Shown here piece by piece: positions 837 to 62,230 of a stretch of DNA of 64,000 nt; within the stretch, counting starts at the first letter, position 1; each line of letters opens with the position of its first letter. Made by a program: the position numbers and the translations under genes. Source of the DNA: Romanomermis culicivorax (lineage: Eukaryota > Nematoda > Enoplea > Mermithida > Mermithidae); assembly GCA_963922205.1 (NCBI GenBank), contig CAWUHX010000141.1, positions 558,001 to 622,000 on the forward strand. The letters run 5' to 3'. Under the pieces are notes generated by a model that was given only the letters and a program-made list of their open reading frames with translations, did not search any database and was not told the origin of the DNA.

Positions 837-1035
837 TTATTAAAGTTATAATCGGCGCGAAGCGCCGGAAAATTTTGAGATTTGAACCTCCTAAAATGCA
901 CCGAAATGTATCTTTTCAATATGCAAACCCAAAATTTTTCTTTCACATTTGTGGAAAGACCTCAAAATTTTTTTTTACACTCCAGATTTTTTTCCGCATT
1001 ATAGTGCAAATGTGGAAAAAACAGTGATCCAAGCA
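837..1035 (+). repeat. GCGCC-hairpin module, partial hAT-like element
   Basis: The stretch begins with AATAATAATGATTATTAAAG, holds the hairpin at 853-868 and the flank GAAAATTTTGAGATTTG, and ends in GTGGAAAAAACAGTG. The same order recurs at 1592-1800, and in reverse complement at 7475-7560 and 52550-52650. It abuts the LINE fragment directly. No target duplication was found, so the outer limits are approximate. Confidence 0.65.
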
Positions 1036-1153
1036 CACATAAACTAACTGAAAATATGTCGTCTTTATTGCAAAAATGATTTTTCTTTTATTTCTTTTAT
1101 ATTCTAAAAAAATTTGGAAAATCCCCCCCCCCTTTTCGAAAATCCTGGATACA

Positions 1154-1371
1154 GGTATGGATCATACCTGTAATTGTCGGAAGTTGGATGGGAGGGGAGC
1201 CCCCCAACTTGGCCAGCCCTATACCCAACCTCTCCAAACTCGGAAAATTGGGGGGGGGGGGGAATTGCCTTTTTTTGGTGGGGATTTTCGACTTTTTTTC
1301 GACCACCCCCCCCCCAAAAAAAAATTTCGGGTTTACCCCCTCCCCAACTGATCAGACCTCTTTCAGGTATG
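1154..1371. mobile_element. Short G/C-tract MITE, CATACCTGTAA family
   Basis: Short inverted ends (CATACCTGTAA near 1162, CAGGTATG at 1364-1371) enclose runs of G and C and the core GGGGAGCCCCCCAACTTGG. The same core and ends occur at 6294-6434, where an 8-bp target duplication is clear, and at 57806-58008, with a fragment near 46640-46681. A perfect palindrome, TACAGGTATG-GAT-CATACCTGTA, spans the left end and suggests two abutting elements. No duplication was found for this copy. Confidence 0.55.
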
Positions 1372-1469
1372 ATTCGGATTAGAACCTAAATTCTTATTTT
1401 CAGTGTTTGATTCAAATAGCATAAATTGATTTCGTTGGGTCAATTTTTAGGTCAATAAATTTTATTAAA

Positions 1470-1800
1470 TATACAGATATAATATTCAAGATTGCCAATT
1501 AAACATGAAATAATACGTTTAAGATGAAGAAAACTATTAAAAATTAAATGATAAGTGAAGGTAGACATGCTAAAAACCGCGCCTGAGCTTGGTAATAAAT
1601 AATAATGATTATATGAAAGTTATAACCGACGCAAAGCGCCGGAAAATTTTGAGATTTGGACCTCCTAAAACGCACCAAAATGCATCTTTTCAATATGAAC
1701 ATCCCAAATTTTCGTTCCACATTTGTGGAAAGACCTCAAAAATTTTTTCCACACTCCAGATTTTTTTCACATTATAGTGCAAATGTGCAAAAAACAGTGG
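1470..1800 (-). repeat. GCGCC-hairpin module, second left-edge copy
   Basis: This copy holds the long form of the module in reverse orientation: an AT-rich arm with AAACTATTAA and GTGAAGGTAGACATG, then GCGCCTGAGCTTGG, AATAATAATGATTATATG, the hairpin at 1626-1642, and an A/T tail ending in GTGCAAAAAACAGTG at about 1798. The same arm follows the hairpin copies at 7530-7700, 31260-31440 and 52590-52760. Confidence 0.65.
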
Positions 1801-2110
1801 TAGTGACCACACCATGAATGAATGAAAGTTTTCCCAAAGTCGGTATGGTGGAAAATAATACTTGAGCTATGTGGATCGTCTATATTTGAAAAGAGGGTTT
1901 TTACACAGGCCAGGTTGCCATGTGCAACTTGTGGAAAAATTTTGGTTGCGCAGACAAATTTTTGGTCGCTCACTCTAAAATCAATAAATAATAAACCACC
2001 AAAAGCTAGTTTTCTTGTATTTCATTCGAATCGCGTTGATTTTAGGCTTTTAAAAACCAATTTTCTGTGTTTTGAAGAGAAAATGAAAAGGTTGGTATGA
2101 GCAACTTATT

Positions 2111-2700
2111 CGGCGCCTAGCGCCGATAATTTTTCGAGATTTTTGATCAGGGTTAGCGGGTTTTGGGGTTGGTGGGTTTTTGGGTTGGAAAATTATGCGT
2201 GTTTAGGATTTTGGGTTTTTTAAGATAAAATTCATTTTTTCCATTTTGTTCTCAAGAATACGAATTCTTCCTGATTTGACAATAAATTGAGACTTGAGCC
2301 AAATGTAGTAACTGCAATGCAGTGTCTTCTGACGCTGACATGACAACAGATTTTAAGATGTGAAATTACACAACGCGACAAACAAATCAAATGCTTCGTA
2401 AATTTTAAATTCAGGAAACTTTTGGCGTTATTCGATTCGATTCATATGACTGTTCTGTTCAGTTGACTTATTTTAATGTAAAAGCTAAAGATTCATATTC
2501 AGTAAATTCAACTTATGTTTGAATTGTTTTTTAGCTGATTCTTTTTCTTGGCTGTGGTTCACTTTGGTAGTTTATCTGAATCTTAGGCAAATTTTACTGC
2601 TCATGAGTCATGAGCAGTGCTAGTGAGCAATGCACATCATTACTTGTAACTGCTAAAGTTTTTGTTATACCTACTCCGAAGGTGCAAAAAACACGGATAT
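2111..2700 (+). repeat. GCGCC hairpin followed by 5' part of a decayed hAT family
   Basis: A hairpin lies at 2111-2125. From about 2141 (CAGGGTTAGCGGGTTTTGG) the sequence matches the 5' part of the hAT relic at 47468-51960, and in reverse the block at 42890-43300. Shared landmarks are GGGTTTTTGGGTTGGAAAATT, TGACATGACAACAGA, CAAATCAAATG and TACTGCTCATGAGTCA. This copy is uninterrupted where the other carries a LINE, so it serves as an empty-site reference. No coding part remains here. Confidence 0.65.
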
Positions 2701-4132: not shown

Positions 4133-7100
4133 ATGTCACTCGTTACTCCGACAATAACATCCAGCGTTTCGACTTGCGCTATTGTTGACTCACCCAAGAC
4201 CATTGCATCCGTGGGCGTCCATTCGCCCCTGCCCAGGAGTTTGCAAGTGGCCTTGCTTATGGATTTAACGACTAAAGAAGGTCAAGCGGCGCGTAGAATG
4301 GCTTATGATGAGCTGCAGAGGATGGGAGAAGCGCAAAATTTGACTTTACAGGTAATTTTCATAAGGCGATCAAATCATATAATCGTAAATAATGTTCTTG
4401 CTTCAAAATTTGAAAACAGTTACAATGCCCCGATAAGTCTCAAGACCATATCTACACTTCGGGGTGTTAAGTGCAGTGAGAAGCCCACCAATGGTCAGAT
4501 CCGGGCCCCCAAAAATGGCCAGCATGATATCTAAACTCAGATCATCCCTTCGAATCCACTGTCCTATCCAGAGGTTCCCAAGGTCAGATTCTTCAGGTAG
4601 GGGTAAAGTTGAAAATTTGCGGGGGTAGTGTAGCTAAATGCCCACTAAACACTTCATTCTGTCTCAAAATTAGGCACCTAGTGATCAATTTTTAGAACTC
4701 TAGGCACGGGTAATACCTCCCCTCATACCCCCTCCCTATGGGGTAGTCTGGTCCTATCGGATCAAAATCTAACAAAAAATTTAGATTTTTGGCTAAAAAT
4801 GAATTTAGAGGCCAAAAAATGTTCAAAATGTCAAATTCTTTGCTGAATATCGTCGTAAAGAGCCATTTTTGCGGGTTTTTGGGACGTATATTTTGGAATT
4901 TGTGATGCCAAAATTGGTATTTTTCGATTACTACCGACACTTTCCTCTAAATGAGCCACGTCTGCGGTCATTTAGCTGACTGCTGACTGAAATGAGCTAC
5001 CAGACTACCCCATAGAGAGGGGCATGAAGGGGGTTTTGCCCCACATAAAGACCTAAAAATTGATCACTGATTGCCTGATTTTGGAAAATAATAACGTGTT
5101 TAGTGGGTATTTTGCCACACTACCCCTGCACTTTTTAAATATACCCTACCTGAAAATCTGAGCCTGGATGCGTACAGCAGTAAATTTATTCAACGTTTTT
5201 TGTCGGAATTAATGTTTCTATCTTCCAAACTTCATTTTTAGCATATTCCTTTCGAAAAGTTGGATTTCGGTGAAACCGCCAGCTTAGATGCATTTTACAA
5301 CGCCGACGTTGCCATTGTTGATCTCAGCGTCAAATACCAGCAAAGTACGCTTTGCTATCACCTTGGTGTCCGGGAAAGTATGAATCAAACATACAACATC
5401 GTATTGTACAATACGGGAGAATCGTTCAAAGATGAATCAATTTCGCAGCCGTTCAAGGTTTGTCCCCGTTTTTTGTCCTGATTCGGATGACTGCGTTAAA
5501 GTAGGCATTTCCCAGGAACTACCACGACATTTTTGCCTCGTTGATTTTACTACACTTGCAAATAGCGTAAATTTACTTTGTAATCTCTCAATCTTGATCT
5601 TGAATCAAATCTCAATCTAACACTTGCATAAAAAACAGCTCATGTAAAGACAAAATATATATTCAGTGTTAAATTGATGCTTCAAAATTGTTGTCTTATA
5701 TAAATTAATATTTTGGATCATTGGTCGACTTGATTCCGGCGTTAAAGCAAACATTACTTCTTTTACTATTGACTTCGTAGCTGGCGATTGGGCATATGCA
5801 AATTTTCTGTTAATTTTAGCAGGATTTAGGTGCTTATATTTTCAAACAAACGATTTAATTGGAAACATAAATTTTCAAGCTGCTGCGTCGGAAAACCCCA
5901 ATATTACGTATAAATTTTACAAATTGTCAACTGTAATCAGCTGGGCTCCCCTTATTAAAATTTCATCATGCCTAAGTTGATCATTAATGACAGGTTTTGT
6001 TTGATGTAGCACTCCATTTATGTGATACCATGTGAAATAAAGTTTTAGAATTTTTACAAACTCACCCAATTTTCAACATATTATGTAAAAGGCACCGGTG
6101 CAGGTCCCTCGTAAGAATGCAATACGCGAGCTACTCGAACCTGAATAAGTTATTTATCAGATACCTAAATCGAATTCCAATAGTTTTAAAAACTTTTTTC
6201 TGGTTTTATTCGGTTATTATGAATTTCTTAGATTACCTACGAGTGTTCTCAGAACACTCGTATATTCCTGAAAATTAATTTATCAATAGTACACATGCCT
6301 GTAATGGGGAGGGGATTGTGGGGGGAGCCCCCAAACTTGGAAAAAATAAAAAAATCGGGAAAAAGTGCCTTTTTCGGGGAAATTTTCGGCTTTTTCAACC
6401 CGCCCCCCAACTGGTCGGACGTCTTACATGTATGATAGTACATTTATTTATCAATATCTGTAACAGTAACAGCTAAGATGCAGGTACAGTGTAACTGCAT
6501 TTTAGCAAATTAATTTCGACACAGTAATTTTTTGGTAGCTTCAAAACTATAAAAAAGATAAACTTGAATGTTTTGCTGATACAATGAAAACAACTCATAT
6601 GCAAACAGACAGACGGACTTTTTTGGCTCGAACGGAATTTCTTTACCGAGTTAACTGTATAGTACAGTAATAAGATGCATTTTGGTGCACTTCAGACTGT
6701 TGGACTGTTGTGCAGAGCAGTTTTTTTTGCACTGTGCAAGATTTTTTCCGCTCGTGCAAAACTTTTTTTTCAGGTTTTTTGCACTGTGCAAAAAATATTT
6801 ATCAATTGTAGAAAAAAATTTGGCGTTTTCATATAGAAAAGATACATTTTGGTCAGGCTTTTTTTCATTAAAAATTTACAGGCCAAATGGCTCCTAGACC
6901 TAAATTTTTAGGAGCCAAACAGACATTTTTAGGGGCCATAAATAATCAATGCACACTTTTGATAAAAATTAATGCATTATATAATTCGTATAGTTTGATT
7001 GTATTTAATCCAAATTTACTTGTATCACAGATGGGGCAAATTTTTTGAATTCGCTTTTAAACCGGAACTCATCAAAAAAGTATATTTTCAGTCAAAACAC

Positions 7101-10100
7101 GACACGTTTATTCATTACGTTTATTGGCAAAATCACCAGTTTTATATCGCGTTTCTTTAGCCCATATTTTGTAAGCACTTTCGAAATCAAAATTATTACA
7201 ATTGCTGTGGCATTTCTGCTAACGCATCAACACGTCCAAATGTTCAGCCTGATTTGATGATCGATGAAAAATCTAATTTTGCTATTTGATTTCTTGATCG
7301 AGTAAGACCTTACTGTTGTTCGAGACCGAGTTTTCGTCTTTAATCTGTTCACTAGAGAAAAACAACTAAAATTCGGTTAAACTTCAGCTGAATTTTTCGG
7401 AGCCAAATTGGCTCCTTGAAGTAAAATTTTAGGAGCCATTTTCGAACTTTTAGGAGTCCAGGCTCTTAGAATGACTGAAAAAAGCCTGATTTTGGTGCAT
7501 TTTAGTAGACCCAAATTTCAAAATTTTCCGGCGCTTCGCGCCGGTTATAACTTTAATAATCATTATTATTTATTGTCAAGCTCAGGCGCGACTTTTAGCA
7601 TGTCTACCTTCACTTATCACTAATTTTTAATAGTTTTCATCGTCTTAAACGTATTATTTCATGTCTAATTGGCGATTTTCAATTATCATTATATTTAATG
7701 AAGGAAGATCCCCATTTTTCCTTCATGCTTTTTTTGAGAAAGATCAACACATCAACTTGCTGCATTTTAGAAGGTAATAATCTCAAAATTTTCCGTTGCT
7801 TGGCGTTGGTTATAACTTAAATAATCATTATTATGTATTACATAGCTCAGACGCGGCTTTCAGAATGTCTACCTTCACCTATCATGTAATTATAATAGTT
7901 TTCATCATCCCAAACGTATTATCTCATGTTGTACAAAAAAACCCTGTTTATAGTACAAAAAAAATTTTCGGCGTGCAAAACTTTTTTGGTGATTTTTTTG
8001 CACCGTGCAAAAGAGCTCGTGCAAAAAAAACACTGGTGCAGAGTCTAGCAAAATCTGATAATTTTTTAAGGGGAAGTTTTAAGTCAGGGCATCCAGTCGA
8101 CATTGACTAAAAATTTATCCGCAGCGTTGGAGTCATATCTGAGGCATTACTAGAAAATTTTTTTCTAATTGATATGTTTTGGAAAAATATGAGTTAAAAA
8201 CTGAATTACTATCACATTGGAAGAAACATAATCTTCGAATTCCTGCCAAGCTGGGTTAGAAATTTGCATACTCAAAAATCGATTAGTTTCTAGTCAAAAG
8301 TAGAATCATATATAGTTTTATTTCTGGTGCTGAAATCAACTTGATCAATACTCCAGAATGTTGATTATAAGACGAAAAATTCAAGACTAATCGTATGACT
8401 TTTACGTTGAATTTGAATGATGTGTCACACTTGCATTTTTATTTTTATACCTAAGTTTGGATTGTTGATTTCCATGAAGAGATTCACTTAAACTGTACAT
8501 AATTGTATTTCACGCTCTCTGTATTGGTGGAATTAACCATGCCAATATGGCTAGCACCGGAAAACGCCATTGCCTGATAATCTTGGTTCCCTACTCATGC
8601 AGGATTGTTTAAATAACCGCCCCGTTTGAAAAGCCTGTTGTACCCCAGCTATCAATTTACAGTTGCCTTATTCAAAAATAGAGTAAGAAGCAATTTTTAC
8701 TATTACAATGTGAGGTCACTGTAAAAATGCTATAACACAAATTAAAGCTGAGCGGACTAAACATGGATGCACTGTTTCTGAGCGAATTTCGATAATAGAG
8801 AGCAAAAGTACTGCCGCCTGTAAATTTTGCAATTTTATACAATTTTCAATAACTTCCTTGGTTGCGAGCTGTAGAACGATCTGAAATTGATCCTAGAGCA
8901 AACTGAAATCAAATTTTCATAGATTGTGATCTCATTCAGCGGTTTTTCTTCAGAATTAGACAGGGCACTGCATGCGTTTTCGTCCCTTAAATTGTTGATT
9001 CTACGGGATCTATCAAAAACTAATCAATAAAAAACCACAAAAGTGAATGGTTTTGCCTAAAACTACACCAACCATACATCAACAGGGTCCATAATTTTGG
9101 TATGGGTAAATTGATAATGTGGCAGTGTGGATAGTATCGTGATCTTTTTCTCTGGTCAACGGCATGTGTTTAGAGTGTTGTCACAGCGAACTATCATTAC
9201 CAAACATATCCTTTCATTCACCCAGGGTCTGCTTAAGGCTACAAAACATAATAGTTACCTAGGAACCAGCCGTTTTCCATAAATTCGCACAAAGCAGCAT
9301 AAATTATGCGGATTTCAAGTCTGGAGCAGGCAAACTGATTTCATAACTAAGTAAATCGAGCAACAATGTTGTTAACTTCCATAATATTTTTGTGCCAAGC
9401 TGCATTCTTTTCTCCCAATATGCTTTTTAATGATAATAACTGTCTAATTACGACGAAAACCGTACACTATTGCTTGAAGTACAATGAACTATAGCCTAAA
9501 TCAAGTTTTCTCCGACTATTTCTCTATAAATTTGCTCACCTTGTGCACCATTTACCTGGGACATGAACCAATTTGTAATTTTTAAACGTGCATGAGTAAT
9601 TTCATCATCCAATCCTGAATCTTAGATCTTCTCTGTTTACTGTTGGGTAACACATTTAGGGGGACCGGACCACCCTATATATTTATAATTTCGTGTCTTT
9701 CAATCTCCTCTTTTGAGCTGATTGTCTTAAAAGTGAGACGTTCAAGCAAAGTTTGCTTTTATGCCGGCCTCCAAAATTCCAGTCATTCAAATAGTCGGTT
9801 TGGTCTTTGTCTTTACTTAAGTTTATTATTCTATATAGGTCACATTCGGCCATTACAAAATCATTCTTTACACACTGAAAGACGACAACCTCACTTGTTG
9901 GGATCCCAGCCAGCTTTTACCCAATGTTGTAACCACGACTTTGGCCACTGCAGCTCCCATGGTACAAGCGACGTGTTGCAACTTCAAAAATAAAATAAAA
10001 AGGTTCCTGAAAGAAGTTCAAATTGACGCCAGGTGTGTTCATTATTTTTCGGAAGGCGTTTTTTTTCGGCTTTGAATTTTTAAAGTTTTGTCAGTGCTCA

Positions 10101-19100: not shown

Positions 19101-22100
19101 AAGCATGAAGATCGTGAGGGTCGGAAAGTTTTCGAATTATAGAAATAGATTTCATCTGAAAATATGTTTCCTAGTAGTGTTGAAGTTTCGCTTTTGAAAT
19201 TGTGATTTTATATATACACTGCAGACTTCATCCATCAAAAGTCTGTTGATACAATTTTTTCCGCTGTGTAAAATTCGTATTATCGTCGTTTTTGCAACTT
19301 TCTTGGCTATTCAAAAAGGCGAACTATAGTTAGTCGCGATTGAATAATGTGAGACCTTTTGAAATCGCAATAGCGATTTTTTGCTTAGCTCGGTTAGATA
19401 ATCACAATTAATGCCAACTTTTCCTTGTAAATCCCGACCTTACTGTCATAGAAAAACTGATAATTTTTCTTGTTTGCTGCTAATCGGACGTAAAAGCTTA
19501 TCCTAGCTTCCGGATTTCGCTTGCTATTCAACATTTTTAGCAACAGTAACAACAACGACTATGAATATGACTTCGAAACTATCGCCGAAGAACCTGCCGA
19601 AGCGGATTCTAAAATTCCAGCTTCCAGGTTGGTTTTTGGTCTCTAGCTGCACTTCATGTAGTTCGTGTATTTTCTTTTTTGTCTTTCCTTTTTGTTTGTA
19701 TCTAAGGTCAAATTCACAAAGGCATGTTTGCACTATCCTGGGGTAAATACGTCACGTGTTTACCTCGGGTAAGCGCTTAAGTTTTCATGGGATTGCTACA
19801 CTACCCCCAACAGACTCTTATTAATACTGGAATAAATTTTACTCCGGAGTAAAGGGATCCACGGAATAGCTACCCGAGAGTACCACGGTATAAATTAGCC
19901 TACCTTTGTGAATACCTACAGGATATAATGATAGAAAATTTTATTAAAAGTTTAACTCATCCAAAACTTTTGTTAGACGTCAGATTCTGCGTGTGCTCTT
20001 CATGCTTTAGTGTAGTTCATTGTTGGTTAATTCAAATTTTTTCATTTCAGCAAAATGCTGCATGATTGTGCTTCATATCGGATCAAAATATTTAAAACTA
20101 TTCCGAAATTGGTATTGTTCATATTTTAATATACAAGTCTGACTTATTTTTCGGATTTTTACACTTTTAGATAACCTTATTTTAAATGTAGTCAATAATG
20201 CTTGAGATAAACTGCAGTGTGATCTCGATTGACTCTTGTAAATTAAGTCTGAAAAATAGGGTTCAGCCAGGAATCGAACCTGGGTTACCAGCATTCCGGG
20301 CTGATGTCCTCACCACTAGTCCACACGAGGTGAACCCAGATTAAGGTGTTCCCCTAGGCTACAATTTTGTAGCCCACAACTCCAATGCTTGGTGGTCGTG
20401 AACCTACGACCTTTGGCAAGTAGCAGCGTACCTGCTGCTTTTTGAACTGCCCACCAATGAAGTTGGTAACTTTTTAGAAATGAAAATTATATGGAATTTT
20501 TTGGAGTGAAAATATTTTTCAAACTTATTTTCACTCATTTTTCAAACTTATTTTCACCCTATTTTTCAAACTTATTTTCACTCCAAAAAATTCCATATAA
20601 TTTTCATTTCTAAAAAGTTACCAACTTCATTGGTGGGCAGTTCAAAAAGCAGCAGGTACGCTGCTACTTGCCGAAGGTCGTAGGTTTACGACCACCAAGC
20701 ATTAGAGTTGTGTGCTAAAAAATCGTAGCCTAGGGGAACACCTTAATCTGAGTTCGCTTCGTGGTGTGGTGGTCTAGTGGTGAGGACATCAGCCCGGAAT
20801 GCTGGTAACTCAGGTTCGACTCCTAGCTGCACCCTATTTTTCAAACTTATTTCCACTCCAACAAATTCCATATAATATTCATTTCTTGTAAATTAAGTCA
20901 TAAATTAACATGAAGCGTTCCGAAAGTTAGAGTTAAATTTATGTCTTTTTGGTTCGGAGAACGTAAATCTTGCTATGAATCGATAACTGATTACCTACTC
21001 TAACCGGCTTCTAATTTTTCAACTTTTTGAAAAACTGTTTCTGATCTAAGCTTGGTATTGGTGCGGCTTTGGGCTGGCGCCTGCATGTCTTGCTTTTCGT
21101 TTGTGCCGCTACGTTTTTTCCTGTCATAATACTCGTTTTATTCGATATTACAGTAAGGTTCTCATGAATGGAGTTTTTGTAGAATATTGACCCCGAAAAT
21201 CTATTGACCAATGTTGTATTTTGATAACGAATTTTATGCCTAATCATTCATAAAATAGAAAATCGAGAAAAAAAATCGAATTTTATGCCTAAAAATGGTA
21301 AAAAAACAGTATGACACGAAGCGCGAGAAAAATTGATATTTCTCTTTTTTTCATCCAAAGAGATAGGCTTTCTATGGCTATCGCATTACCATGTGACTAT
21401 TTCTGGGGAATTCTTGAAACACTCCACCCCCTCCAGTTACATGTATGTATATAATCGAGGCCGTAGTCAGGATTTTTCTAGATCTGTGGAAATATGACCG
21501 GCGTGAAGGCGTGAGGCACGGAAGCATTTGGTGTTTGGGCCTCCTACGATACATCGGAATCAGATTAATGCTACATTTCTATCTCGATACACTTGGATGA
21601 CTCCCTAAAAGATTGTTTTGTCCCACATTGTGGTATTGTGTAGTTCTGATTCAAGGATACGTGCTGGAAAATTTCAGCTTTCAACATCATGAAATGCACG
21701 AAAATGCTCTATTTTTGTTTGTAGAATTTTCGAAACTCGCTCGAAGTCACTTCCAAATCGTTTCTTAACAAATAATGCTCAAACGAATAGATAATCGGCG
21801 CGCAGCGCCGAAAAATTAGTGATTTTGACCTTCCAAAAGGCAGAAAAATGTATTTTTTTCATTTTGGTGCATTCCTATCTAGTCACTAATTGGTCCGTTG
21901 GATGGGCGATCGCCTCCCCACTCTCCTGCTCACCTTGTACCCATACATGTGACGGAGCTTCGAGCTGTGGTAGATCGAGTGACTTTTTGGGGTCGGACTC
22001 GGAGGGTCATCGATTGCCCAAAATTTCAGGGGTTTTTGAAAAAAGCCTCAAAAAGTTAAAAAAGCAGTTCAAAAAATAGTAATTTTTGCCTGAATCCCTT

Positions 22101-25100
22101 TTAAAAATGTATTTATGGCACGAAACGCGGAAAAAATAGCCATTTTTGACCGTTTTTTGTTCACAAATGACCATTTTTCATTCAAAAATTTACATTTTTC
22201 AGTATCAAACGCAACGGGGATCTCTATGGCTAGCCATAGGATTGGAAAATCTTGAAGGTGGTCAACATATGGCTAACCATAGGACCGGCATTTTCTCAGG
22301 AGGTTCCCTTCTAGACCCCAGGCGTCGCCAAGGTCGGAAATCCGCTTGTAGCTAAAATTCTATATGGCGAGAGTAATACTCTCATACCGCGCGGTTACCT
22401 TTTTTGTTTCGTTTTTTTGCCCGCTGTGTCAGGTCAGCGGGGTGTATATTTCCGTGGTTCCCTGAATACAATAAGTGCACAGCGATGTATAAAGAAACAT
22501 ACTACAAATCACTTATTCCCCAATTTGACATGTTCATCTTATAAAATACACCAAAATTGTTTTTTCACGTCGAATCCCCAACATTTTCCCCTTTCTGAAC
22601 ATTATTTCCTAAATCAGCACAATTTGAGAACAGACAGTGGATTTCCCAATCCGAAGAATTACAAAACAAACTCGGGCGCGATGCGCCAGAAAACTTCTCC
22701 CGCTTTTTCTGATTTTATAGCCTGGAAAACCGGGGCCGGTTTCATCAAAGAACACGCAAAACATATCGATGAAGTTAGGCTGCGGCTGAGCTGCACCTTT
22801 ACGGCAATGGTAAAAGATATAGTTAAACTACAGCTTAAGCTGCAGCTCAGCTTGAGCTTTAGTCTCTTTGATGAAACCGGTTCCCGTTTTCTGACCTTGT
22901 AATCCAGACAAAATATCTTTCGACTTTGTACAAACATACCAAAAACGTTTGTCTCGTACAAAAAAACAGTGGTGCTATGCATCTGTCAATTTTTTCAATT
23001 TCGCGCATCAAAATCATCCATGCAGTATATACATTTTCAAAACTGTGGACGCCGTAAACATAGTTTTCCCAGACTGACTACGCACTCCTAAAAATACCCC
23101 GTTGCAAAAAAGTGTCCACTCACTCATTTCCTTCAAATAGGCTTACCCATTATGACACTGCTCAAAATTTAGTGAACCAGTAAGTCATTTTTCTCTTATT
23201 TCACTCAACCAGTAAGTCATTCTTACCGGAGTGGTAAATGAATTTTCGAACCTACAGCCGAGGTAATACCCCTCATACCTCCCATTGGGGTGGTTTGCTA
23301 CCCCAGATTACATGTATACCTTACCATTTTTACAATTTTTATTTCGCTATTTGCTTTTATTTTTATTTTTCTACACCGAAAGAAGCTTTCTCATTTAGTC
23401 ACATGCCGTTGCTGACATCGTCGACTACGCCGTCGCAAAAAACCGCCGCTCTTTTATTGTCGGCTCCGACCTCTAATAACGCATCGCCGACGCCGGTTGA
23501 TATACGCGTTTCGAGTAATTCGAACGAATTGAGCCCCGGAGTACCGGCTTCGGGTGATCATTCGAATCGATTTTTCTTGTTGAGGAAAGATTCGGAGAGG
23601 CGGGAAACGTTGGTGGCGATTATGACGGACTTTGATAAGGAGGTCGATTACATGAATCCTCTTTTTGAGACCTATTTTATAGACTATTTTACATTATTTT
23701 TATTTTTCTCCTCCCACTTAGTCAAGCATTGTTGTTTTTTTGTTTTTTTTTCCGTGTATTCTGTTTGATATTATTTTGTTTTTTATTCTGCATCATTTCG
23801 GGTTTTCACAATTTCATTTCCGTGTTCATTTTCAATAATTTTACTGTACAAATCGTTTTTATAGATTATTGAATCGTGGCTGGCTGCGATCCGCAAGGAT
23901 ATCCTCAAACCAGTATTGTCTGAAAATTTGCTCACGCCTTTACTTGCGGCTCTTCGCGAACATATTCACTCACGCGATTATTCTATCGTACAGAAAGCTC
24001 TGGGTGAGTTTTTGCTCATTGTATTTAAGTTGATAATATTCTGTATGATTTAGTGTGAAATTTTTATTACGATGTGCGACCTACATAGTGATCGGCGGTG
24101 TTGTACAGCAACGTCCCACTTCAGCATGATACCTAACTCTTCGATTTTTCTCATCTCATTTTTAACATTTCAACAGTTCTCGAAGCCAACGTTAGTGGAG
24201 AGTATAATTTGAAGTATAAACTTAAAATTATTGTCAGAAAGTTTTATATTGTTAAGATTTTCCTTCTCTAATGAAATGTAAAATGTGAATTTCGCTTATA
24301 ATCCATCGGTTAACTAGCTGACCGCAACTAGAAGTTCAAGATTTACAGTTGATACTCAGAGTTTCAAATTGCTGACAAGTTTGTCTACTATAGGATAGCG
24401 AATAAGCGAAATCGATTTCCTTTCTTTGTTACTTTGAATAAAAATACTGATGTGAACACCTTCTTTAAAAACTTTCTTGTACGCATTAAAGATGTACGGC
24501 AAAAAATTTTCCGGGTAGGAAAGGGGTATGCGGTGGTTAAAAATTTATCCGTCTTTCTCAATCCTATTTGCATGTGGTACGCACATTCAACAATCATAAA
24601 CACGCTCCAAAGTTACTGTCGCTACCTACTCCCATGAAATTTCAACACGTGAAGCTTACAAATGAAAGTTGAGAAAAAACGAAACTAGGAATTCTGTATG
24701 ACAGTCAAAAGATGTCTGTTTTGACGAATTTTCGCATTTTTTCTAGACAAGATTCGTTCCGATTTGGATTACGATGCGACCAGCGTCGGACAACTCCATT
24801 TGGCCCTTTTTATGTTACAAGACGCGGTAATTTTTTTGCAAATGTATTATCGAGCGTATGACGTCGACGATTCTTACCTAGGTTCATCCAGTACTAAAAC
24901 AACAACAAATCAAACCGCATTGGATGTTTGCTTTAGATAATTTGATACGATCGGCGGTTCAATGCGCGGTCAACGTGTTGTCGCCAGGTATAAAAATGAC
25001 CTGCCTAAATAAGATGTCCACTTTTCGACTGAAATTTTAGGGCCTTAAGGATGAAATACGAAATTTTTCATGTTCTTTCGTTCAGTATAATTTCAAAACA

Positions 25101-43389: not shown

Positions 43390-43850
43390 GATGAATTTTT
43401 TTCTTTGACAAACCCAAAAAACCGAATGTCCGCCAACCCCGGAAAGAAGTTGCTTTTTTGGGAAAATTTTCGGTTTCTTCCGACTTTTTTGAAGGATTTT
43501 TGGGGACCCCCGAAAATTTTGGGAATTTTTTGGTACCCTCAACCAGGATTTTTTTGCACAGTCCAGGTTGCAATGTGCACATAGGGAAAAATTTTTGTAG
43601 CGGATAAATTTTTAGTTGCTCACTCTAAAATCGATAAATTTGCTTGAATTTAGCGGAAAAACCATCGTAAACTAGTTTTCTTGTATTTCAATCGATGAGC
43701 GTCGGTTTCAGGCTTTTAACACTCTGTTTTCTGATTTTGGAGAGAAAAGGAAAAGATTAATATGACTAGACTAGAGTAATGTGTTCGGCGCATAGCGCCG
43801 AAAATTTTTCCTGAGTTGCAATATTCTAGAACGCTAGAAAATGAATCTTT
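43390..43850. repeat. Fragments of G/C-tract and GCGCC-hairpin repeats
   Basis: GACCCCCGAAAATTTTGGG (43502-43520) and CCGACTTTTTTGAAGG belong to pale copies of the CATACCTGTAA-type MITE. TTGCACAGTCCAGGTTGCA (43551) starts the element that includes hairpin CGGCGCATAGCGCCG at 43788-43802. Confidence 0.45.
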
Positions 43851-44394
43851 CTACCTTCCACTTCCCAGACAGAAGGTTTGATCTCTCAATAAATTTAATG
43901 AATTTTTAGTCGGACAAACTAAAATTAAAAAACTAGGCAAGCGACCAAGAATTTGGATATTTTAACCGAATTTAGCCTAAATGTTTAGACTTTTTCTATT
44001 CTTATAATTCTAGCACTGCCTTACACTCAAAATGTTTTAATCACAGGAAAATCAAAATTTTCATGAAGATCGAAGAAAGATTTTTTGAAAATAACCGAGA
44101 AAAATGTTAGTTTTCATCAAATTCGTTAAAAAACAATAGGGGATCAAACATTTAGGCGAAATTTTATAAGTGGGTCCCGGCTTTCAGCCAAATTACTATA
44201 TATGAGTTGTTTGTTAATTTTGGGCAGTGGCTAGACGGACTCGAGTCCATCGAGCCGAAACACATAAAGTGGCTAAATGGACTCGAGTTTTCTTGTAGTA
44301 CAGTAAACGCATGGATATTGATAGTTGTGAGCCAAATTTTCAAACCTGTACAGTATGACGTCATAACATATAAAAAAACTCTTTTTCTCTTTTC

Positions 44395-45145: not shown

Positions 45146-45521
45146 GGAAAAGACCGAAAATTTTTTTATACGTTATGACGTCATACCGTACGTATATTTC
45201 ATGTACAGCATGTTTATACATCGCACTATATGGTTCTGAGTCGCTTCTTTTAAAAGGGTATATCTTATAACATGTTATACACTCACAGTTTATTCTTCGA
45301 AGCTCTAGATCTGCAGGTTTGAAAATTTGCTCATAGCTATCAATATCCATACATTTACTGTACTACAAGAAAACTCCAGTCCATTTAGCCACTTTGTGTG
45401 TTTTGGCTTGATGGACTCGAGTCCATTTAGCCATTTTGCAATTTTTGACTAAATGGACTCGAGTCTATTCAGTTATTTAGCGGGTTTTGACTAAATGGAC
45501 TCGAGTCCATTTAGCCACTGC

Positions 45522-46424: not shown

Positions 46425-46700
46425 TAAAACCCGACGCAAAGCGCCGGAAAATTTTCACTTTTCCATTTTAGAACGCATAAAAATCATCTCAGGACAGAAA
46501 AGCCTATAACCCAATCAAAGGGCAGTCAGGCCTCAAGTTGCACTGTGCAATTTGGCAGAAAAAAATTGGTTGCACAGCCCGAAATTTGGTAGCTGTACGC
46601 AAAAAAAGCCTGCCACCAACCCAACCCAGAAATTTGGAGTTTAACTCCCCCCCCCAACTGGTCGGACCTCTTACAGGTATGTTTATGGCCTATCAAATTT
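46425..46700. repeat. GCGCC hairpin and fragments of two MITE families
   Basis: The hairpin CCGACGCAAAGCGCCGG is at 46431-46447, then GAAAATTTTCACTTTTCCATT. At 46525-46560 lies the TTGCACTGTGCAA motif, and at 46640-46681 the right end of a CATACCTGTAA-family MITE (CCCCCAACTGGTCGGACC..ACAGGTATG). Confidence 0.5.
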
Positions 46701-52428: not shown

Positions 52429-53509
52429 CATAGTTTTTTTAATCTTTTACAAGCCATGGCTTGTTGGACTGACAAAATGGCTTGTAGAATTTTAGTCCAA
52501 CAAGCAAAAATGGCTTGTCAGAATTTTTTGAGTCATGTGTTTGATCATATCAGATACAGAAAAGATGCATTTCGGTGCATTTTAGAAGGTCATTATCTCA
52601 ACCGGTTATAACTTAAATAAGCATCATTATTTATTTCCTAGCTCAGGCGCTGCTTCTAACATGTCTACCTTCATTTATCATTTAATCTTTAATAGTTTTA
52701 ATCATCTTAAACGTATAATCTCATGTTTTAATTGGTAATCTTCAATATTTCATCTTGATATTTAATGAAGATTCACATTTTTCCCTTGACACATTTTTTG
52801 AGAAAGATCAATATACGTCAAGTCTGTAAACTTTTTGAAGTGATTATTCCTTTCTCAACGTAAAATCAATCCAAAAGCTTCATGGAAGTAGTTTTCGGAA
52901 ACTTCTTCTCTTCTTGCTCATATCTATTTGGTCAAGTTCATCAGAGTGTGTGAATAAATTAATTGTTTTAAAATTTTTGAAACATGAAATTCCAGAAATT
53001 ACGACCTTTGAACAGAAAATTCGAATTCTTCAAACAAGTGGTTGGAAAATTGATTTTCCAGTATCGCAGAATGTCAATACTCAAAAAAATTTCCGGCGTT
53101 TCAGGCAGGAAAGATTAATAGCTTTTTTGGGCTCTCACTTGTCATCATAGACGACTTAACCATCGATTTCTCATGTAATTCAAAGTCATTATGTTCTTGG
53201 ATAGTTTGCTGGAAAATTTTTTCCACAATGCTTGTAGATTGGACTTCGATCAAACTCAAAAATTTCAAATGTTTCCTGAATTTTAATGAATTGACGGCTC
53301 TAAAATGTTATTGAATAAATGTTGAATGACATCTCTTTTTTGATCGATTGAGGTGATGCTCAATACATTTCTTTAAAAAATAACCTAGCATTGGAATTTA
53401 TTCACGTATACTGATATTACAAAATTGACTTGCAAAAATTTGGAATGGCATGTAAAATTTAAGGTCAACAAGCCACTTGGCTTGTGACTCGTATATCAAA
53501 AAAACCCTG
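52429..53509. mobile_element. Nested hAT-like element with CAAGCCA..GGCTTG subterminal repeats
   Basis: The left end CATAGTTTTTTTAATC and right end TATATCAAAAAAACCCTG are both followed inward by CAAGCCATGGCTTG / CAAGCCACTTGGCTTG motifs. The flanks GGTGTATG (52421-52428) and GAGGTATG (53510-53517) match at 6 of 8. The inside is the GCGCC module in forward orientation (52555-52950), with the hairpin largely deleted and a decayed one near 53092. Confidence 0.65.
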
Positions 53510-56199: not shown

Positions 56200-56345
56200 A
56201 CTTCGGCGTAGAGCGCCGAGAAAATTTTGCGTTTTCATCCCTAAAATGACTAAAAATCAAGAAAATTCAGGCGTTGACCAGTCGAAAAATTTGCGCCAAT
56301 TGGCACAAATGCCCAAAATTTTTTGTGCCATTCCAAATTTTTTGG
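56200..56345 (+). repeat. GCGCC hairpin module fragment
   Basis: The hairpin CGGCGTAGAGCGCCG is at 56203-56217, followed by AGAAAATTTTGCGTTTTCATC. It then runs into GCGCCAATTGGCACAAATGC and ends at the large inverted repeat. Confidence 0.55.
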
Positions 56346-56350
56346 GTAAA

Positions 56351-56922: not shown

Positions 56923-57782
56923 CAGGGCCGTGCACAAGGGGGGGGGGCGAGGGGGCGCCCCCCCCCCCATTGAGGCAGTAACTCTAAACCGAAAAGATGC
57001 GTTTTGGTAGACTTTAAAAGGTCAAAATCTCAAAATTTTCCGGCGCTTCGCGCCGGTCATGAGTATAATTATGACTATATTCTATCAGGCGCGGCTGTTA
57101 GCATATCTACTTCGACTTACTAATTAATGCTCAACAGTTTCTATCAATCAAGTTAGCTCGTTTCATTTTCTAATCGTTTACAGTCAATTATGTCGCCGAA
57201 AATAGAGATTTTTCATCAAGTCTCTCAATTTTTTCTCTCGATGATTGGAATTTTTTAAACGTTTCCAATCTGAACTTTTGCGTTTATTGAAGGTGGAAAT
57301 TGAAGACATTACTCTAGAACGCGATTTTCAAAACATTTGTTCACGAATTAACTGTTGGAGAGATTTATTTTTCAGCGTTTTAGAAAGTGAAAATCAAAAA
57401 ATTTTTCCGGCACTCCGCGCCGGACGATTCTATTATATTGAACACCAATATATTCTTCATAAGCTCATTTTGACTAATATAACGAGAATTTTCTCAATTT
57501 TTTCCTTATTTTTGCAAGTTTCTGACTACAAATACAACAAAATGCTTGGGTATGCTCTTAAAATGCATAAAAAAGCATCCGTAGCCACATTATAAGCGTT
57601 TTTAAAAATTTTTGGAAAATGAGGAAAAAAATATTGGGTCCGGTTCTCATGTGGAAAAAATCTTCGAGGAAAAAAACGGTGATGCACACAGTATATCCGC
57701 GTAAGATCAACATTTTCTGGGGCTATTCAGTGAAAAAATCTAGTCTGCCCCTCCTCATGAAAAAATCCTGCGCACGGCCCTG
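56923..57782. mobile_element. hAT element, CAGGGCCGTGCGCA family, second copy
   Basis: Ends CAGGGCCGTGCACAAGG and TCCTGCGCACGGCCCTG are flanked by identical CCCAAGAC 8-mers (56915-56922, 57783-57790). Hairpins are at 57040-57056 and 57407-57423. Poly-G and poly-C tracts lie inside the left end. It lacks an inner segment of about 110 bp present in the 26991-27981 copy. There is no transposase. Confidence 0.95.
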
Positions 57783-58109: not shown

Positions 58110-59115
58110 GATCTCGCTTCGCAATCACCGTTTTTTTTCCTCGAAGATTTTTTCCACATGAGAACCGGACCCAAAATTTTTTTTCTCATTTTCCAAAAGT
58201 TTTCTACATTTTTAAAAACGCTTATAATGTGGCTACGGATGCTTTTTTATGCATTTTAGGAGCATACCCATGCATTTTGTTGTATTTGGAGTCAGAAACC
58301 TGCAAAAATGAGAAAAAAATTGAGAAAATTCTAGTTATATTAGCCAAAATAAGCTCATGAAGAATATATTGGTGTTCTACGGGAGCGGGTGAAGCATGTT
58401 AATGAATAACGATAGAAATATCAGGAATCTATCCGCTATTAACATTTCTATGGCTCTCATTAGAATCATCTAATTTTATTTAGTTGTTAGTCCGGCGCGG
58501 AGCGCCGGAAAAATTTTTGAATTTTCACTTTCTACAACGTTGGAAATTGAACCTTCACAACGTAATAAATAAATTAAAATCCGACTCATGAAGTATAATT
58601 TGTTTCCCATTCCGGCGCGACGAAGCGCCGGGAAAATTTTTCAGGTTTTATATTCTAAAACGCTGGAAAATAAATCTCTCCAACAGATATTCATAAACAG
58701 AAGTTCTAAAATCGCAGTCTAGAATGATGTCTTCAATTTCTATCTTCAATAAACGCAAAAGTTCAGGTTGCAGACGTTTGAAAAATTCCAAACATCGAGA
58801 GAAAAAATTGAGAAAATTGATGAAAAATCTCAATATTGGGCGACATAATTGACTGTTAACGATCAGAAAATGAAACGAGCTAACTTGATTGATAGAAACT
58901 GTTGAGCATTAATTAGTAAGTCGAAGTAGATATGCTAATAGCCGCACCTGATAGAAAATTGTCAAGACTCAAGATTGTACCCGTGATCGGCGGGAAGCGC
59001 CAGAAAATTTTGAGATTTTGACCCTTTTAAGTCCACCAAAACGCATCTTTTCGGTTTGGAATTCCCCAAAATTTTTTCCTCAATGAGAACCATACCCAAA
59101 ATTTTTTTCCTCATT
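58110..59115 (-). repeat. Reverse partial copy of the CAGGGCCGTGCGCA hAT family with three GCGCC hairpins
   Basis: From 58125 the sequence is the reverse complement of the right part of 56923-57782 (CCTCGAAGATTTTTTCCAC, GGTTTCTGACTACAAATAC-type block, TTCATGAGCTTATTTTGGC). 58490-58960 continues with hairpins at 58494-58509 and 58613-58632 and the leucine-rich peptide-like stretch. Another hairpin is at 58987-59003. The termini are missing. Confidence 0.65.
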
Positions 59116-59360
59116 TCGAAATCTTTTTCCTCAAAAGACCCCATTTGAGGAAAGAACGGTGTTCGCAATTGCTTTTTCTGTAGGAAGAGACGCGAGTGTC
59201 GAATTTTCACAGTAAAAATATCACTGATAACAAAGTTCTGCTTTACAAATGCAACTTGTTATTGCAAATCTCTTCCAGGCAAACCATTCATGAAGTTTAC
59301 TGTTTCGAAAAGTCGATAAAAATTACAAAGAAAATTATTATATGAATTTTGCACAAATTT

Positions 59361-61359
59361 TTAGTGTTTGCCATAAAATCGACGCTTCGGACAAGCGCAA
59401 TATTGGGCGTCTTTGCCAGGTTGGCCTTGGGGTCCTTGACCTCCGGGTTGTCCGCGTCCGCCCTGTTGTCCCGGTTGACCTTGCGATCCTCGGTCACCTG
59501 GCGCGCCTTGCTCGCCAGGTCGACCGTTCGATCCGGGGTTACCTGGTTGTCCGGGTTGTCCATCTTGACCGGGGGTACCACTGTCGCCGCGTTGACCGGG
59601 AGTGTAGGCTGTGGCATCGCGTCCAGGCGATCCTTGCATGCCGGGGTTGCCATCGCGACCTGGTTGACCAGCGGACCCGGGTTGTCCTTGGGGTCCGGTT
59701 TGGCCGGCCATGCCCGGGTTGCCGCTTCGGCCGGGTTGACCTTTGCCACCCTGCAAAAATATGAATTAGAAATGAAATTTTGGTTTTAAACAAAAATCTT
59801 CAATGCACAGATGATCAAAGGTACAGCGTTGCATACAAAGCGTTTGACATAAAAATCGTGATCGTGGGAAGCGCTTAAGTTGACTTTTACACTTGCACTC
59901 TGCACATTAATCACAGTTGTTTTTGTGATCATGCAAAGTCATTTTTACGAATTATGTTGTCGCCATGATATATCGTAATCTCATTACTTTCAACGAAACA
60001 ATAGAAGAATCAGGTAAAAGTTAAAAAAATTGTTAATACCGCTTAAAATTTCATGACTACTTAAAAATTATCCTCATTCAACGGATTTATGCCCTAACTT
60101 CTGAAGCTTAAAAATTATTTATGGTAGTTTTTTGATCTACAAGATGTAATATTGCGTATGTGTAGGTCGTGCACTAACTTGGAAAATTGGTTAACTACTA
60201 CAGCCCATTTACTCTGAAATATAGCAGACGCAGCGCCAATAAAAAGGCAAGTTCAATTTGAGACACAATTTTTGGTGTCGAAAACTAGTGTAGAAAAAAT
60301 TGATTTTTCCGCGACAACGGGAGCAAAAGCCAATTGTTCATTTTGATTTGGATAGAAATGTGCCGACACGGTACAAAATAATCAGTCGGTGTGTTTGTCG
60401 CTGATAGACGAGAATTTTTTTTCATTGATAACAGTAATAAGATTAATATTTTTCGAATATTGAACTTGCATTCATCAGTTTGATGCGTCATTTCAAAACA
60501 AATAGACCATAATGTTGCAAACATGTCACAATAAAGATTGTGAAATGAAAACTGGATGATCCGATGGGGTCGTTTATTTCGATTGTTAGGAACAAAATTA
60601 CTTATGATGGAACTGTTGGATGCATTTTTGAGCCACCTGAATTAGCAGTGAAATGATGAAAGTGGGCCACTTTTTCTTTCATGATTTGCTCGTGCTTCGT
60701 TTTATTTGTTTTTCATACTCTGAAAACTCACTTGTCTTCCAGGCGTTCCAGAGTCACCCGGGTTGCCTTTGGGTCCGGGTGGGCATCGGATGCAAGGCAA
60801 AGGATCTCTGTTGAATTGTCCGGGTCTGGCCGTCCACGCCGGTCCCTTGACACCTGCTTGGCCGGGATTACCGTTCTCCCCATCGCTACCCGGTTCGCCG
60901 ACCGGTCCGGTGGGACCTGGTGGGCAATAGTTTTGTTCGTTGCATTGACACAGACCGGCTAAAAAGAGAGAAAAATTCAAGGGACGGTAAAGTGGGATTT
61001 TTGGGTTATAGCCGTTTCGAGACAGATGGTAGTCACCAAAAGGCCAACAGCTAAGGCAAAACTTACTTTGACCATAAGCTTGTCTGGTTTTCCTCATTGG
61101 CAAGGCTTCTCGTTTCGTTAGTCTGCAAAAAATGTAGTCACATATTGACACCTTGCCAAAGAAGATTCAAGATTGTTCTGTACTTGATCGCGTCCCAAGT
61201 CTCGTCTGACAATACGCGGAATTGCACAACGCCCATGGCCACTTCGCTCTGTATCATGGTGGCTTTTTGGAAAATTAGGGGCAAATAGATCAACGAGCCG
61301 AGTATAGCCGCCAAACTCAAACATATGGCGCCTGTGGCCACCAAGTCGGTGTGGGTCAT
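59361..61359 (-). CDS. Nematode cuticle collagen (4 exons)
   Basis: Minus-strand exons 61184-61359, 61067-61122, 60732-60958 and 59361-59750 sum to 849 nt (282 aa plus stop), a usual size for the family. An N-terminal cuticle-collagen domain has a hydrophobic segment at residues 6-28 (signal anchor) and the block VLSDETWDAIK. A furin-like site RKTR (69-72) precedes the secreted part. Cys81/83/89 (CQCNEQNYC), a CIRC pair and YCAC near the end bracket Gly-X-Y blocks, unusually rich in Gln (GQPG). Such chains trimerise, are processed, and crosslink in the extracellular cuticle. All introns are GT-AG. A plus-strand frame over exon 4 is an artefact of Gly-X-Y codons. TTTTTAAAAATCAG before 61371 could be a spliced-leader acceptor or a further 5' exon. 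The exon 1 donor at 61184 is chosen because the later GT would bring in a stop. Confidence 0.93.
59751..60731 (-). other. Collagen intron 3: nothing recognised
   Basis: AT-rich 981-bp intron between the two triple-helix exons. No repeat module or inverted ends are seen. Confidence 0.45.
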
Positions 61360-61376
61360 TTCAGGGGATTCTGATT

Positions 61377-62000
61377 TTTAAAAATATTTTGAACAATTAA
61401 TTTTACATCAAAATTCTATCCGCCTCTACTCTAACATTCAGCTTTGATCACACCCTATCTATAACAGATTAAATTACGAAAAATCGTGGTCCTTCCGGAT
61501 TATATGGCAGTCATATCAGTCTATGCAAAATAACGAAAGACATTTTCATTCATTTCAGATACCTTGTGATCCAGAAAATTCAAAATCATCTATCGAAAAC
61601 AGATGGTATTCTTCAAGACTTACCAAAAAAAACCTTAAAAACCGAATTTTCGTCAAACAATGGTGGCTACCAACTTTTACGTGTCATTTTTATACCCAAC
61701 ACGGGCTAATTAATGGTTCATCAACGTAAAAATAGTATCCATAATTACGGTCAAGGTATCTCAAAACTGTTTACAGAAGGATATTACAGATTCTAGAAGA
61801 AAATTGTTTACCGTAGTAAGTAAACAAAACTAATTAAGGTAAATCATAATGGTTTTTCCCAAGGCCGTTTGCTTTTATTGGAATTATGGCCCATTTTGTA
61901 TTGACAAAATTATCCAGAAAAGGACCTTGAAAATCGTCGCTTGGTGGAGAAGTTGTCTTTTCGGAGAAAATTATCCCCGGATGTTTGACTTCCACGCAGG
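61377..62000. other. Upstream region of the collagen gene
   Basis: No repeat or gene is recognised. The promoter of the collagen gene probably lies here, but no specific site can be supported from sequence alone. Confidence 0.35.
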
Positions 62001-62230
62001 CTTTTTTTGATCATTTTAGAGGCCTGGGCTCCTAAAAGTTTGGAAATGGCTCCTAAAATTTTAGGTCTAGGAGCCACTTTGGTTCCTAAAATTTTGACTT
62101 ATTCATTTATGTAATAGCGAATTGTAGTTATTTTCATTCAATTTTAGATTTAAAATACGTGTTTTACAGGCTCTAAAATCATAAAACACGGAAAATTTTA
62201 CGGCGCTTAGGGCCGGATCTAATTCTATAA
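62001..62230. repeat. AGGAGCC-repeat element end and GCGCC hairpin
   Basis: CAGGCTTTTTTTGATCATTT at 62002 matches the left end of the element at 6854-7488, with the same AGGAGCCA subterminal repeats to about 62095. A hairpin-like CGGCGCTTAGGGCCGG lies at 62201-62216 after GGAAAATTTTA. The right end was not found. Confidence 0.55.

What the first reader, a model, noticed from the sequence alone, without database searches (positions are those of the whole stretch)
837..62216. A GGCGC-NNN-GCGCC hairpin module shared by many unrelated-looking mobile elements
About two dozen copies of a 13-17 bp GC-rich hairpin, most followed by GAAAATTTT, occur on both strands (about 853, 1626, 2111, 7529, 21796, 22675, 27109, 27475, 27596, 30915, 31424, 36783, 37968, 43788, 46431, 56203, 57040, 57407, 58494, 58613, 58987, 62201). 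Loops vary (GAA, CTA, GCA, GAT, ATA, GGA, CAA) while the stem is kept, which suggests that pairing rather than plain sequence matters. The hairpin sits inside hAT-like elements with different termini (CAGTGTTTTTT, CAGGGCCGTGCGCA, CATAG), so it may be an internal cassette captured by several families, such as a transposase site, a terminator-like structure or an RNA element.
Basis: partly seen in the sequence, partly recalled or inferred. Interest (0 to 1): 0.8.

Follow-up and report, generated by a model that had tools for sequence, protein, structure and literature searches.

The report
Hairpin inside end-swapping nematode transposons
In a nematode genome, a short GC-rich hairpin is an inherited internal part of a group of small hAT-like jumping elements whose insides stayed related while their ends were replaced by unrelated ones; there is little sign that the hairpin is kept for its pairing.

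Summary
The hairpins are real: 20 matches to GGCGCNNNGCGCC with at most 1 mismatch against 0.22 expected; all 22 listed places carry one. The unit is a directional core of about 64 bp, hairpin then A4T4 tail. The tail is recognised with its own family left out in 16 of 22 copies at E<0.01.

The core lies inside hAT-like non-autonomous elements with 8-bp target-site duplications (five at 7-8 of 8, one at 6 of 8). They share interiors but differ in both ends. Copies with CAGGGCCGTGC ends hold the left end of the CACCG type inside them. Another pair is 84% identical inside with unrelated ends. So 'captured cassette' is partly right, but the cassette is most of an element.

'Pairing matters' is not supported: only the outermost of 7 pairs has two-sided changes, no more than shuffles. 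In two of three families the stem decays at about its tail's rate or faster; in the third it is kept.

A shared interior with different ends has a precedent in coral CMITEs (PMC2872659). The host is a nematode (Col_cuticle_N). No whole genome was held.

The parts
56923..57782 (-). E1: complete hAT-like element, 860 bp, ends CAGGGCCGTGC, TSD CCCAAGAC; hairpins at 57042 and 57409
   Evidence: TSD 8/8, TIR 11/12; holds an E3-type left end inside
26991..27981 (-). E2: second copy of the same composite, 991 bp, TSD CTGATACT; hairpins at 27111, 27477, 27598
   Evidence: TSD 8/8, TIR 10/12; 94% identical to E1 over 504 bp
58126..59161 (+). E3: element with the same interior but ends CACCGTT(T/C)TTT, 1036 bp, TSD TTCGCAAT; hairpins at 58494, 58614, 58989
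   Evidence: TSD 8/8, TIR 10/12; alignment with E1/E2
30491..31585 (+). E4: element with ends CAGTGTTTTTT, 1095 bp, TSD AACCACGG/AACCAGGG; hairpins at 30917, 31427
   Evidence: TSD 7/8, TIR 11/12
6718..8035 (-). E5: element with ends CAGTGTTTTTTTTGCAC and CAGTTTTTTTTGCAC, 1318 bp including nested N1, TSD GTGCAGAG; hairpin at 7530 and a decayed core at 7794
   Evidence: TSD 8/8, TIR 10/12; tail hits
6854..7488 (-). N1: GGAGCC-type hAT-like element nested in the tail of the E5 core, TSD ATTTTGGT
   Evidence: TSD 8/8, TIR 11/14
52429..53509 (-). E7: element with ends CATAGTTTTTTT and CAGGGTTTTTTT and an E4-like interior; both hairpins lost or decayed (tails at 52601 and 53094)
   Evidence: TSD only 6/8, TIR 11/14; 84% identical to E4 over 798 bp
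815..1026 (+). Family A core (hairpin 854-866) with its tail and a CACTG-type right end; left end not found; family A sequence begins only about 39 bp upstream of the hairpin
   Evidence: 89% identical to 1587-1799
1457..1799 (+). E6: family A interior (hairpin 1628-1640) and CACTG-type right end; left end not found
37911..38162 (-). Family B interior (hairpin 37968); ends unresolved
   Evidence: 84% identical to E1/E2 over 251-253 bp
43787..43859 (+). Core copy, family D (partner at 2112 lacks the tail)
   Evidence: family-left-out tail E=6e-05; 43551-43810 and 1898-2135 are 73% identical
2112..2135 (+). Hairpin, family D, no recognisable tail
21797..21865 (+). Core copy, with a second, hairpin-less tail at 21668
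   Evidence: left-out tail E=8e-05
46433..46486 (+). Hairpin with a weaker tail; a hairpin-less tail at 47019
   Evidence: left-out E=0.14, so membership is uncertain
56205..56260 (+). Hairpin with a weaker tail
   Evidence: left-out E=0.95, uncertain
62146..62214 (-). Hairpin (62202-62214) with a weaker tail; a hairpin-less tail upstream at 62597
   Evidence: left-out E=8.4, uncertain
22675..22738 (+). Hairpin, relative of the 62202 copy
   Evidence: 22533-22730 aligns to 62357-62161 at 70%; no tail hit when its family is left out
36784..36796 (-). Hairpin without recognisable tail, possibly unrelated
   Evidence: left-out tail E=36

Best explanation
The hairpin is the 5' edge of a core of about 64 bp that belongs to the interior of an old lineage of hAT-like non-autonomous elements (MITE-like) in a nematode. 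The shared plan is: left terminal part, left interior, core 1 (once or twice), middle, core 2 about 125-175 bp from the right end, right terminal part. The cores in an element point the same way. Shown: one lineage of interiors now sits between several unrelated pairs of ends, and a composite with new ends has inserted at two sites (E1 and E2, different target duplications). Inferred: ends were replaced when one element landed in or beside another hAT element and a later deletion, or template switching in gap repair, left the older interior between new outer ends; a different transposase then moved it. The hairpin travelled as part of this cargo. Its presence in many 'families' reflects shared descent, local duplication of the core and, in E1 at least, recombination between cores. 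Any function of the hairpin itself (most plausibly a DNA-level cis element) is unproven.
For: Five elements with 8-bp TSDs at 7/8 or 8/8. A scan of the whole window that ignored hairpins gave 7 CANNG-ended candidates, E1, E3 and E4 among them, against 0, 2, 1 and 0 in four offset controls; E2 and E5 were missed because one end of each departs from CANNG. E1/E2 contain E3's left end from CACCG (CATCG in E2) inward, about 100 bp inside their own CAGG(G/A)CCGTGC ends; shared interiors 86-94% identical. E4 and E7 are 84% identical over 798 bp, their family A parts grouped at 94/92 support, while their terminal 100 bp do not match (z -0.8 to 0.0) and E4's ends match E5's instead (z 10.6, 9.5). E3 and E4 interiors align above every one of 60 shuffles in two segments (z 9.8 and 5.5; the second overlaps the family A/B similarity already known). 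Cores within each of E1-E5 and E7 point one way. The E1 core 1 looks like a hybrid of E2's two tandem cores (reading).
Against: Six hairpins (2112, 22675, 36784, 46433, 56205, 62202) have no tail hit at E<0.01 once their family is left out, and the upstream parts of the D and 62202/22675 families do not align with E3/E4 (z below 3). So 'one lineage' is shown for 14 of 22 hairpins, not all. Between family consensus sequences the arms are identical (0 of 14) while tails differ at 9/54, 16/53 and 20/53, which could mean past constraint. The end comparison is not clean: some ends of different types reach z 4-6 (E1L-E5R 5.8, E3L-E5L 4.5, E1L-E3L 4.4), and the two ends of E3 or of E4 hardly match each other over 100 bp (z 1.1, 1.4). 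In the tree only the split of families A and B passes the support threshold. E7's TSD is only 6/8. No hAT transposase was found, but only 10 of the 27 ORFs listed were scanned.
Confidence: 0.72

Rival explanations
1. The hairpin core is a functional cis element (protein-binding site, promoter or enhancer motif, transposition enhancer, or RNA hairpin) kept by selection while elements are active, and decays only in dead copies.
For: Arms identical between the consensus sequences of families A, B and C although tails differ by 16/53 (A-C) and 20/53 (B-C) (Fisher p 0.016 and 0.006; A-B 9/54, p 0.19). Within family C the stem is conserved (4/140 against 100/480 in the tail); in A and B it diverges less than the 40 bases upstream (119/400 and 87/240, compared without gaps and so inflated by indels). 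Cells that pair, 89.0% against 86.4% shuffled, 3 of 500 shuffles as high. Core 2 lies 125-175 bp from the right end in E1-E5 and E7 after subtracting nested N1 from E5, and about 165 bp in the two CACTG copies. Nematode MITEs that carry functional motifs are known (PMC9757741, passages read).
Against: Copies were found by their stem, so the comparison is biased. Stem divergence is close to the tail's in family A (28/140 against 109/480) and higher in B (18/84 against 18/288). Two-sided changes only at the outermost pair and not above shuffles. 10 of 30 tail copies lack a good hairpin. Recombination between cores would also keep arms alike.
Confidence: 0.17
2. The core is itself a small mobile unit that inserted repeatedly into unrelated elements.
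For: Upstream flanks differ sharply between core types while the core is alignable.
Against: Same orientation of cores within each bounded element, and the tandem cores in E2/E3 look like local duplication. E1-E4 share sequence outside the cores. Target duplications around single cores were not searched for.
Confidence: 0.06
3. The core is a Helitron 3' end or a transcription terminator.
For: A GC-rich hairpin near one end of an element is typical of Helitron ends (recalled).
Against: In the main families homology runs about 51 bp beyond the hairpin, and the elements end in CA..TG with 8-bp TSDs; A4T4, not a T run, follows in most copies.
Confidence: 0.02

Closest known systems
CMITE elements of Acropora corals (PMC2872659; abstract, found passages and Discussion read)
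   Same: MITEs with different TIRs but a shared, highly conserved internal region (75 bases there); tandem copies; a new element made by insertion of one element
   Different: CMITEs are piggyBac-type (TTAA duplications, CC[C/T]T ends, about 100 bp). Here hAT-type, 8-bp duplications, about 0.9-1.3 kb, shared interior of several hundred bp, and a GC hairpin core
CERP2 and CELE2 MITEs of Caenorhabditis (PMC9757741; passages read)
   Same: Nematode MITE families sharing a short motif pair (m1m2), divergent or in tandem
   Different: There the motifs lie in the inverted repeats and were shown to be needed for germline promoter activity, with HIM-17 as linked factor. Here the core is internal and no regulatory activity is known; m1/m2 were not compared
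Mar, a hAT MITE family of Drosophila (PMC3517528; abstract and outline read)
   Same: hAT-type non-autonomous elements with TIRs and target-site duplications
   Different: Mar is said to have originated by internal deletions of a full-length element; the abstract reports no exchange of ends

Membership tests
hAT superfamily (non-autonomous) | 8-bp target-site duplication | tested here: met
   8/8 in E1, E2, E3, E5, N1; 7/8 in E4; 6/8 in E7; four offset controls 0, 2, 1, 0
hAT superfamily (non-autonomous) | Short TIRs of the CA(N)(N)G type | tested here: met
   CAGGG, CACCG, CAGTG, CATAG/CAGGG ends; one end each of E2 (CAGGA) and E5 (CAGTT) and both of N1 (CAGGC) depart at base 5; the type itself is recalled
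hAT superfamily (non-autonomous) | Mobilised by a hAT transposase; autonomous partner | tested here: inconclusive
   None among the 10 of 27 listed ORFs scanned with Pfam; rest of the genome not held
MITE | Short and non-coding | tested here: inconclusive
   860-1318 bp, longer than typical (recalled; PMC2872659 says usually under 500 bp); a 116-aa open frame in E1 (57245-57592) has no Pfam match
CMITE | Different TIRs with conserved interior | tested here: met
CMITE | TTAA duplication and CC[C/T]T ends | tested here: not met
   8-bp duplications and CA..TG ends
CERP2/CELE2 | m1m2 motif pair | not tested
   motif letters not in the passages read
Known structured RNA family (Rfam) | Match above gathering score | tested here: not met
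   Window scan: only two tRNA hits, outside the cores. E2 scanned at E up to 5: 12 matches, all far below their gathering scores; one of them, CRISPR-DR20, 19.1 against 42 bits, lies on a hairpin
Helitron | CTRR end just after a hairpin, no target duplication (recalled) | tested here: not met
   8-bp TSDs; homology continues about 51 bp after the hairpin

The most novel reading that the evidence does not exclude
A non-autonomous interior that survives by repeatedly changing its transposase: it keeps a cis-acting hairpin core near the junction where new terminal domains are joined, so that the core takes part in end replacement or in mobilisation by several hAT transposases.
Probability: 0.1. 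Interest if true: 0.7.

Novelty: new variant of a known kind. Interest (0 to 1): 0.42.

Why it matters
MITE families are usually read as 'same ends, different inside'. Here the reverse is visible in one 64-kb window, with one composite (E1/E2) that keeps an older element type's left terminus inside and has inserted at two sites. This gives a concrete, testable case of non-autonomous elements switching the transposase they depend on, and a warning that a hairpin shared across 'families' can be common descent rather than selected pairing.

Tried and rejected
Looked for relatives outside the window: no match in viral contigs for two patterns. In genome contigs the first pattern gave none and the second gave two bacterial loci, L001 and L002, judged chance hits from their record titles only and not examined further. 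Own genome not held. Literature: the hairpin 15-mer was not found in the held library. Searches for hAT/MITE/nematode interiors and for TIR exchange (one search listed 20 of 24) gave the coral CMITE paper as the only direct precedent I recognised in the listings; only three papers were opened.

Dropped before counts: the candidate 42228-45097 (duplication AAAAAAAA, low complexity), and the weak candidates around 22675, 36784 and 37968. One search, a first scan without the CA..TG rule, gave 27 and 77 candidates, mostly pairs inside longer inverted repeats; only E1 of the reported hairpin elements is among those shown. 2112 and 36784 were never used to build the tail models. 854 was left out of the tree, because its upstream part is not family A. 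The E7 core (52601) was left out, because its hairpin is deleted.

Rejected: other known RNA family; Helitron end (TSDs); core as part of a terminal inverted repeat (cores are direct, not inverted, within elements). Folding z-scores for five copies ran from -0.16 to -3.14; I take the low values as due to the GC hairpin itself, not as a sign of selection. A covariance model was not built: with one window, no independent copies were left to test it on.
Full report
Observation. GGCGCNNNGCGCC with at most 1 mismatch occurs 20 times, against a mean of 0.22 in 100 shuffles. Oriented by their tails, most copies share more than a hairpin: a core of about 64 bp that reads CCGGCGC-GAA-GCGCCGG, AAAATTTT, a variable stretch, then a TTCTAAAACGC-like and an AAAATGNATCT-like stretch (my reading). 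When each copy's own family is left out of the profile, the tail is still found at E<0.01 in 16 of 22 copies. The 6 exceptions are 2112, 22675, 36784, 46433, 56205 and 62202. With the full model there were 30 hits at E<0.05 in the window and 2 in all of 20 shuffled windows. Of those 30, 20 keep the hairpin with at most 2 stem mismatches and 10 do not (my reading).

Host. The window is eukaryotic and from a nematode: an N-terminal nematode cuticle collagen domain (PF01484, E=1.5e-12) and collagen repeats lie at 59.3-61.4 kb. No whole genome is held for it.

The elements. Five complete elements bounded by 8-bp target-site duplications contain 11 of the 22 hairpins: E1 56923-57782, E2 26991-27981, E3 58126-59161, E4 30491-31585 and E5 6718-8035. 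The sixth row, with A-run duplications, was set aside. E5 also carries a nested element N1 (6854-7488, TSD 8/8). A further one, E7 (52429-53509), has a 6/8 duplication and has lost or decayed its hairpins. A separate scan for CANNG-ended elements over the whole window gave 7 candidates, of which E1, E3 and E4 hold hairpins and four others do not; controls with displaced duplications gave 0, 2, 1 and 0. E2 and E5 are missed by that scan because one end of each departs from CANNG. These features fit hAT-type non-autonomous elements. No hAT transposase was found among the 10 of 27 listed ORFs that were scanned.

Shared interiors, different ends. E1, E2 and E3 align over most of their length at 86-94%. 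E1 and E2 have about 100 bp outside the point where E3 begins (101 and 105 bp by the positions): the E3 left terminus (CACCGTTTTTTTTCCTCG; CATCG in E2) lies inside them, next to foreign sequence that ends in CAGG(G/A)CCGTGCGCA. On the right, clear similarity stops about 53 bp after the core 2 hairpin and a G-rich stretch with the same new terminus follows. E1 and E2 have different target duplications, so the composite has inserted at least twice. E4 and E7 share 798 bp at 84%, and their family A parts group together (94/92 support). Yet their terminal 100 bp do not match each other (z -0.8 to 0.0), while E4's ends match E5's (z 10.6 and 9.5) and E7's match N1's (z 11.8 and 11.7). E3's right end matches that of the two CACTG copies (z 10.1, 10.4), although their interiors belong to families B and A. 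E3 and E4 interiors are also related, more distantly (z 9.8 and 5.5 for two of 66 segment pairs compared; the second overlaps the family A/B similarity). Interior relationships and end relationships therefore disagree.

Limits of that result. In the nine-row tree only the split between families A and B passes the support threshold; E4+E7 is just below it, and 4 of 6 inner branches are open. In the end comparison some ends of different types reach z 4-6 (E1L-E5R 5.8, E3L-E5L 4.5, E1L-E3L 4.4), probably through T-rich stretches. The two ends of one element match weakly over 100 bp (z 1.1 in E3, 1.4 in E4, 2.2 in E1, 3.8-5.2 in E2, E5, E7 and N1).

Place and direction of the core. In E1-E5 and E7 the cores in one element point the same way. 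Core 2 lies 125-172 bp from the right end in E1-E4 and E7, about 165 bp in the two family A copies with a CACTG end, and about 175 bp in E5 after subtracting N1 and its duplication (and arithmetic). The core nearest the left end lies 367-432 bp from it in E1-E4 and E7. E2 and E3 have core 1 twice, 121 bp apart; E1 has one, which looks like a hybrid of the two.

Is pairing selected? On 22 aligned hairpins (the 58614 copy with the longer loop dropped, the decayed 7794 copy added), 89.0% of cells pair against 86.4% in shuffles (3 of 500 as high). Only 1 of 7 pairs shows two-sided changes (479 of 500 shuffles at least as high); it holds 4 such cells (57 of 500 as high). That pair is the outermost, next to the A4T4 tract, where a one-base length difference can mimic it. 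The covariation score was reached by 19 of 500 shuffles, which related sequences can give without structure. Within families, pairwise stem divergence was 28/140 in A, 18/84 in B and 4/140 in C; tails were 109/480, 18/288 and 100/480; the 40 bases upstream, compared without gaps, were 119/400 in A and 87/240 in B. A and B speak against constraint on individual copies relative to the tail, C for it. Consensus arms of A, B and C are identical (0 of 14) while tails differ by 9/54, 16/53 and 20/53 (Fisher p 0.19, 0.016, 0.006). This could reflect constraint while elements were active, but the families were recognised by their stem and cores within an element can recombine, so it is weak evidence.

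Comparison with what is known. The general phenomenon, MITEs with different TIRs and a conserved interior, was described for coral CMITEs (PMC2872659; abstract, passages and Discussion read), which are piggyBac-type and about 100 bp long. The authors leave open whether the interior helps transposition and themselves mention search bias. Nematode MITEs sharing a functional motif pair are known from Caenorhabditis (PMC9757741, passages read). I saw no report of this hairpin or of hAT-type elements with exchanged ends in the listings, which cover only the held open-access library; Repbase and Dfam were not available.

Verdict. The hairpin is best read as an inherited, locally duplicated part of the interior of an old non-autonomous hAT-like lineage whose ends have been replaced more than once. 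The end replacement, shown most directly by E1/E2 against E3, is the more interesting result. A function for the hairpin is neither shown nor excluded.

Noticed in passing
45522-45959: 438-bp hAT-like element with perfect 8-bp duplication (GCCACTGC) and 12/12 CAGTGTTTTTTT ends, no hairpin.
   Followed up: no
15783-15956: 174-bp hAT-like element, TSD CATAGTGC 8/8, CAGGG(G)TTTTTT ends, no hairpin.
   Followed up: no
56351-56838: Inverted repeat with 149-bp arms 98.7% identical, 190 bp apart, possibly a young foldback element.
   Followed up: no
44348-45191: Array of palindromic ATGTTATAACAT-type repeats with 18- to 134-bp periods; one candidate pair of ends flanked by TGACGTCA.
   Followed up: no
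20241-20852: Nearly symmetric inverted repeat with a tRNA-Ser (GGA) in one arm and a weaker, partial tRNA match in the other.
   Followed up: no
48104-51586: LINE on the - strand: endonuclease and reverse transcriptase domains, split into two ORFs by a stop.
   Followed up: partly
11257-12961: Tc5/pogo-type transposase in two overlapping ORFs (HTH_Tnp_Tc5, DDE_1).
   Followed up: partly
32501-33589: Two minisatellite arrays (15/31-bp unit) in inverted orientation about 0.8 kb apart.
   Followed up: no
62597 and 62202; 47019 and 46433; 21668 and 21797: Pairs of core tails in one direction, one of each pair without a hairpin, with tail hits starting about 400, 570 and 140 bp apart: possibly further two-core elements.
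   Followed up: partly
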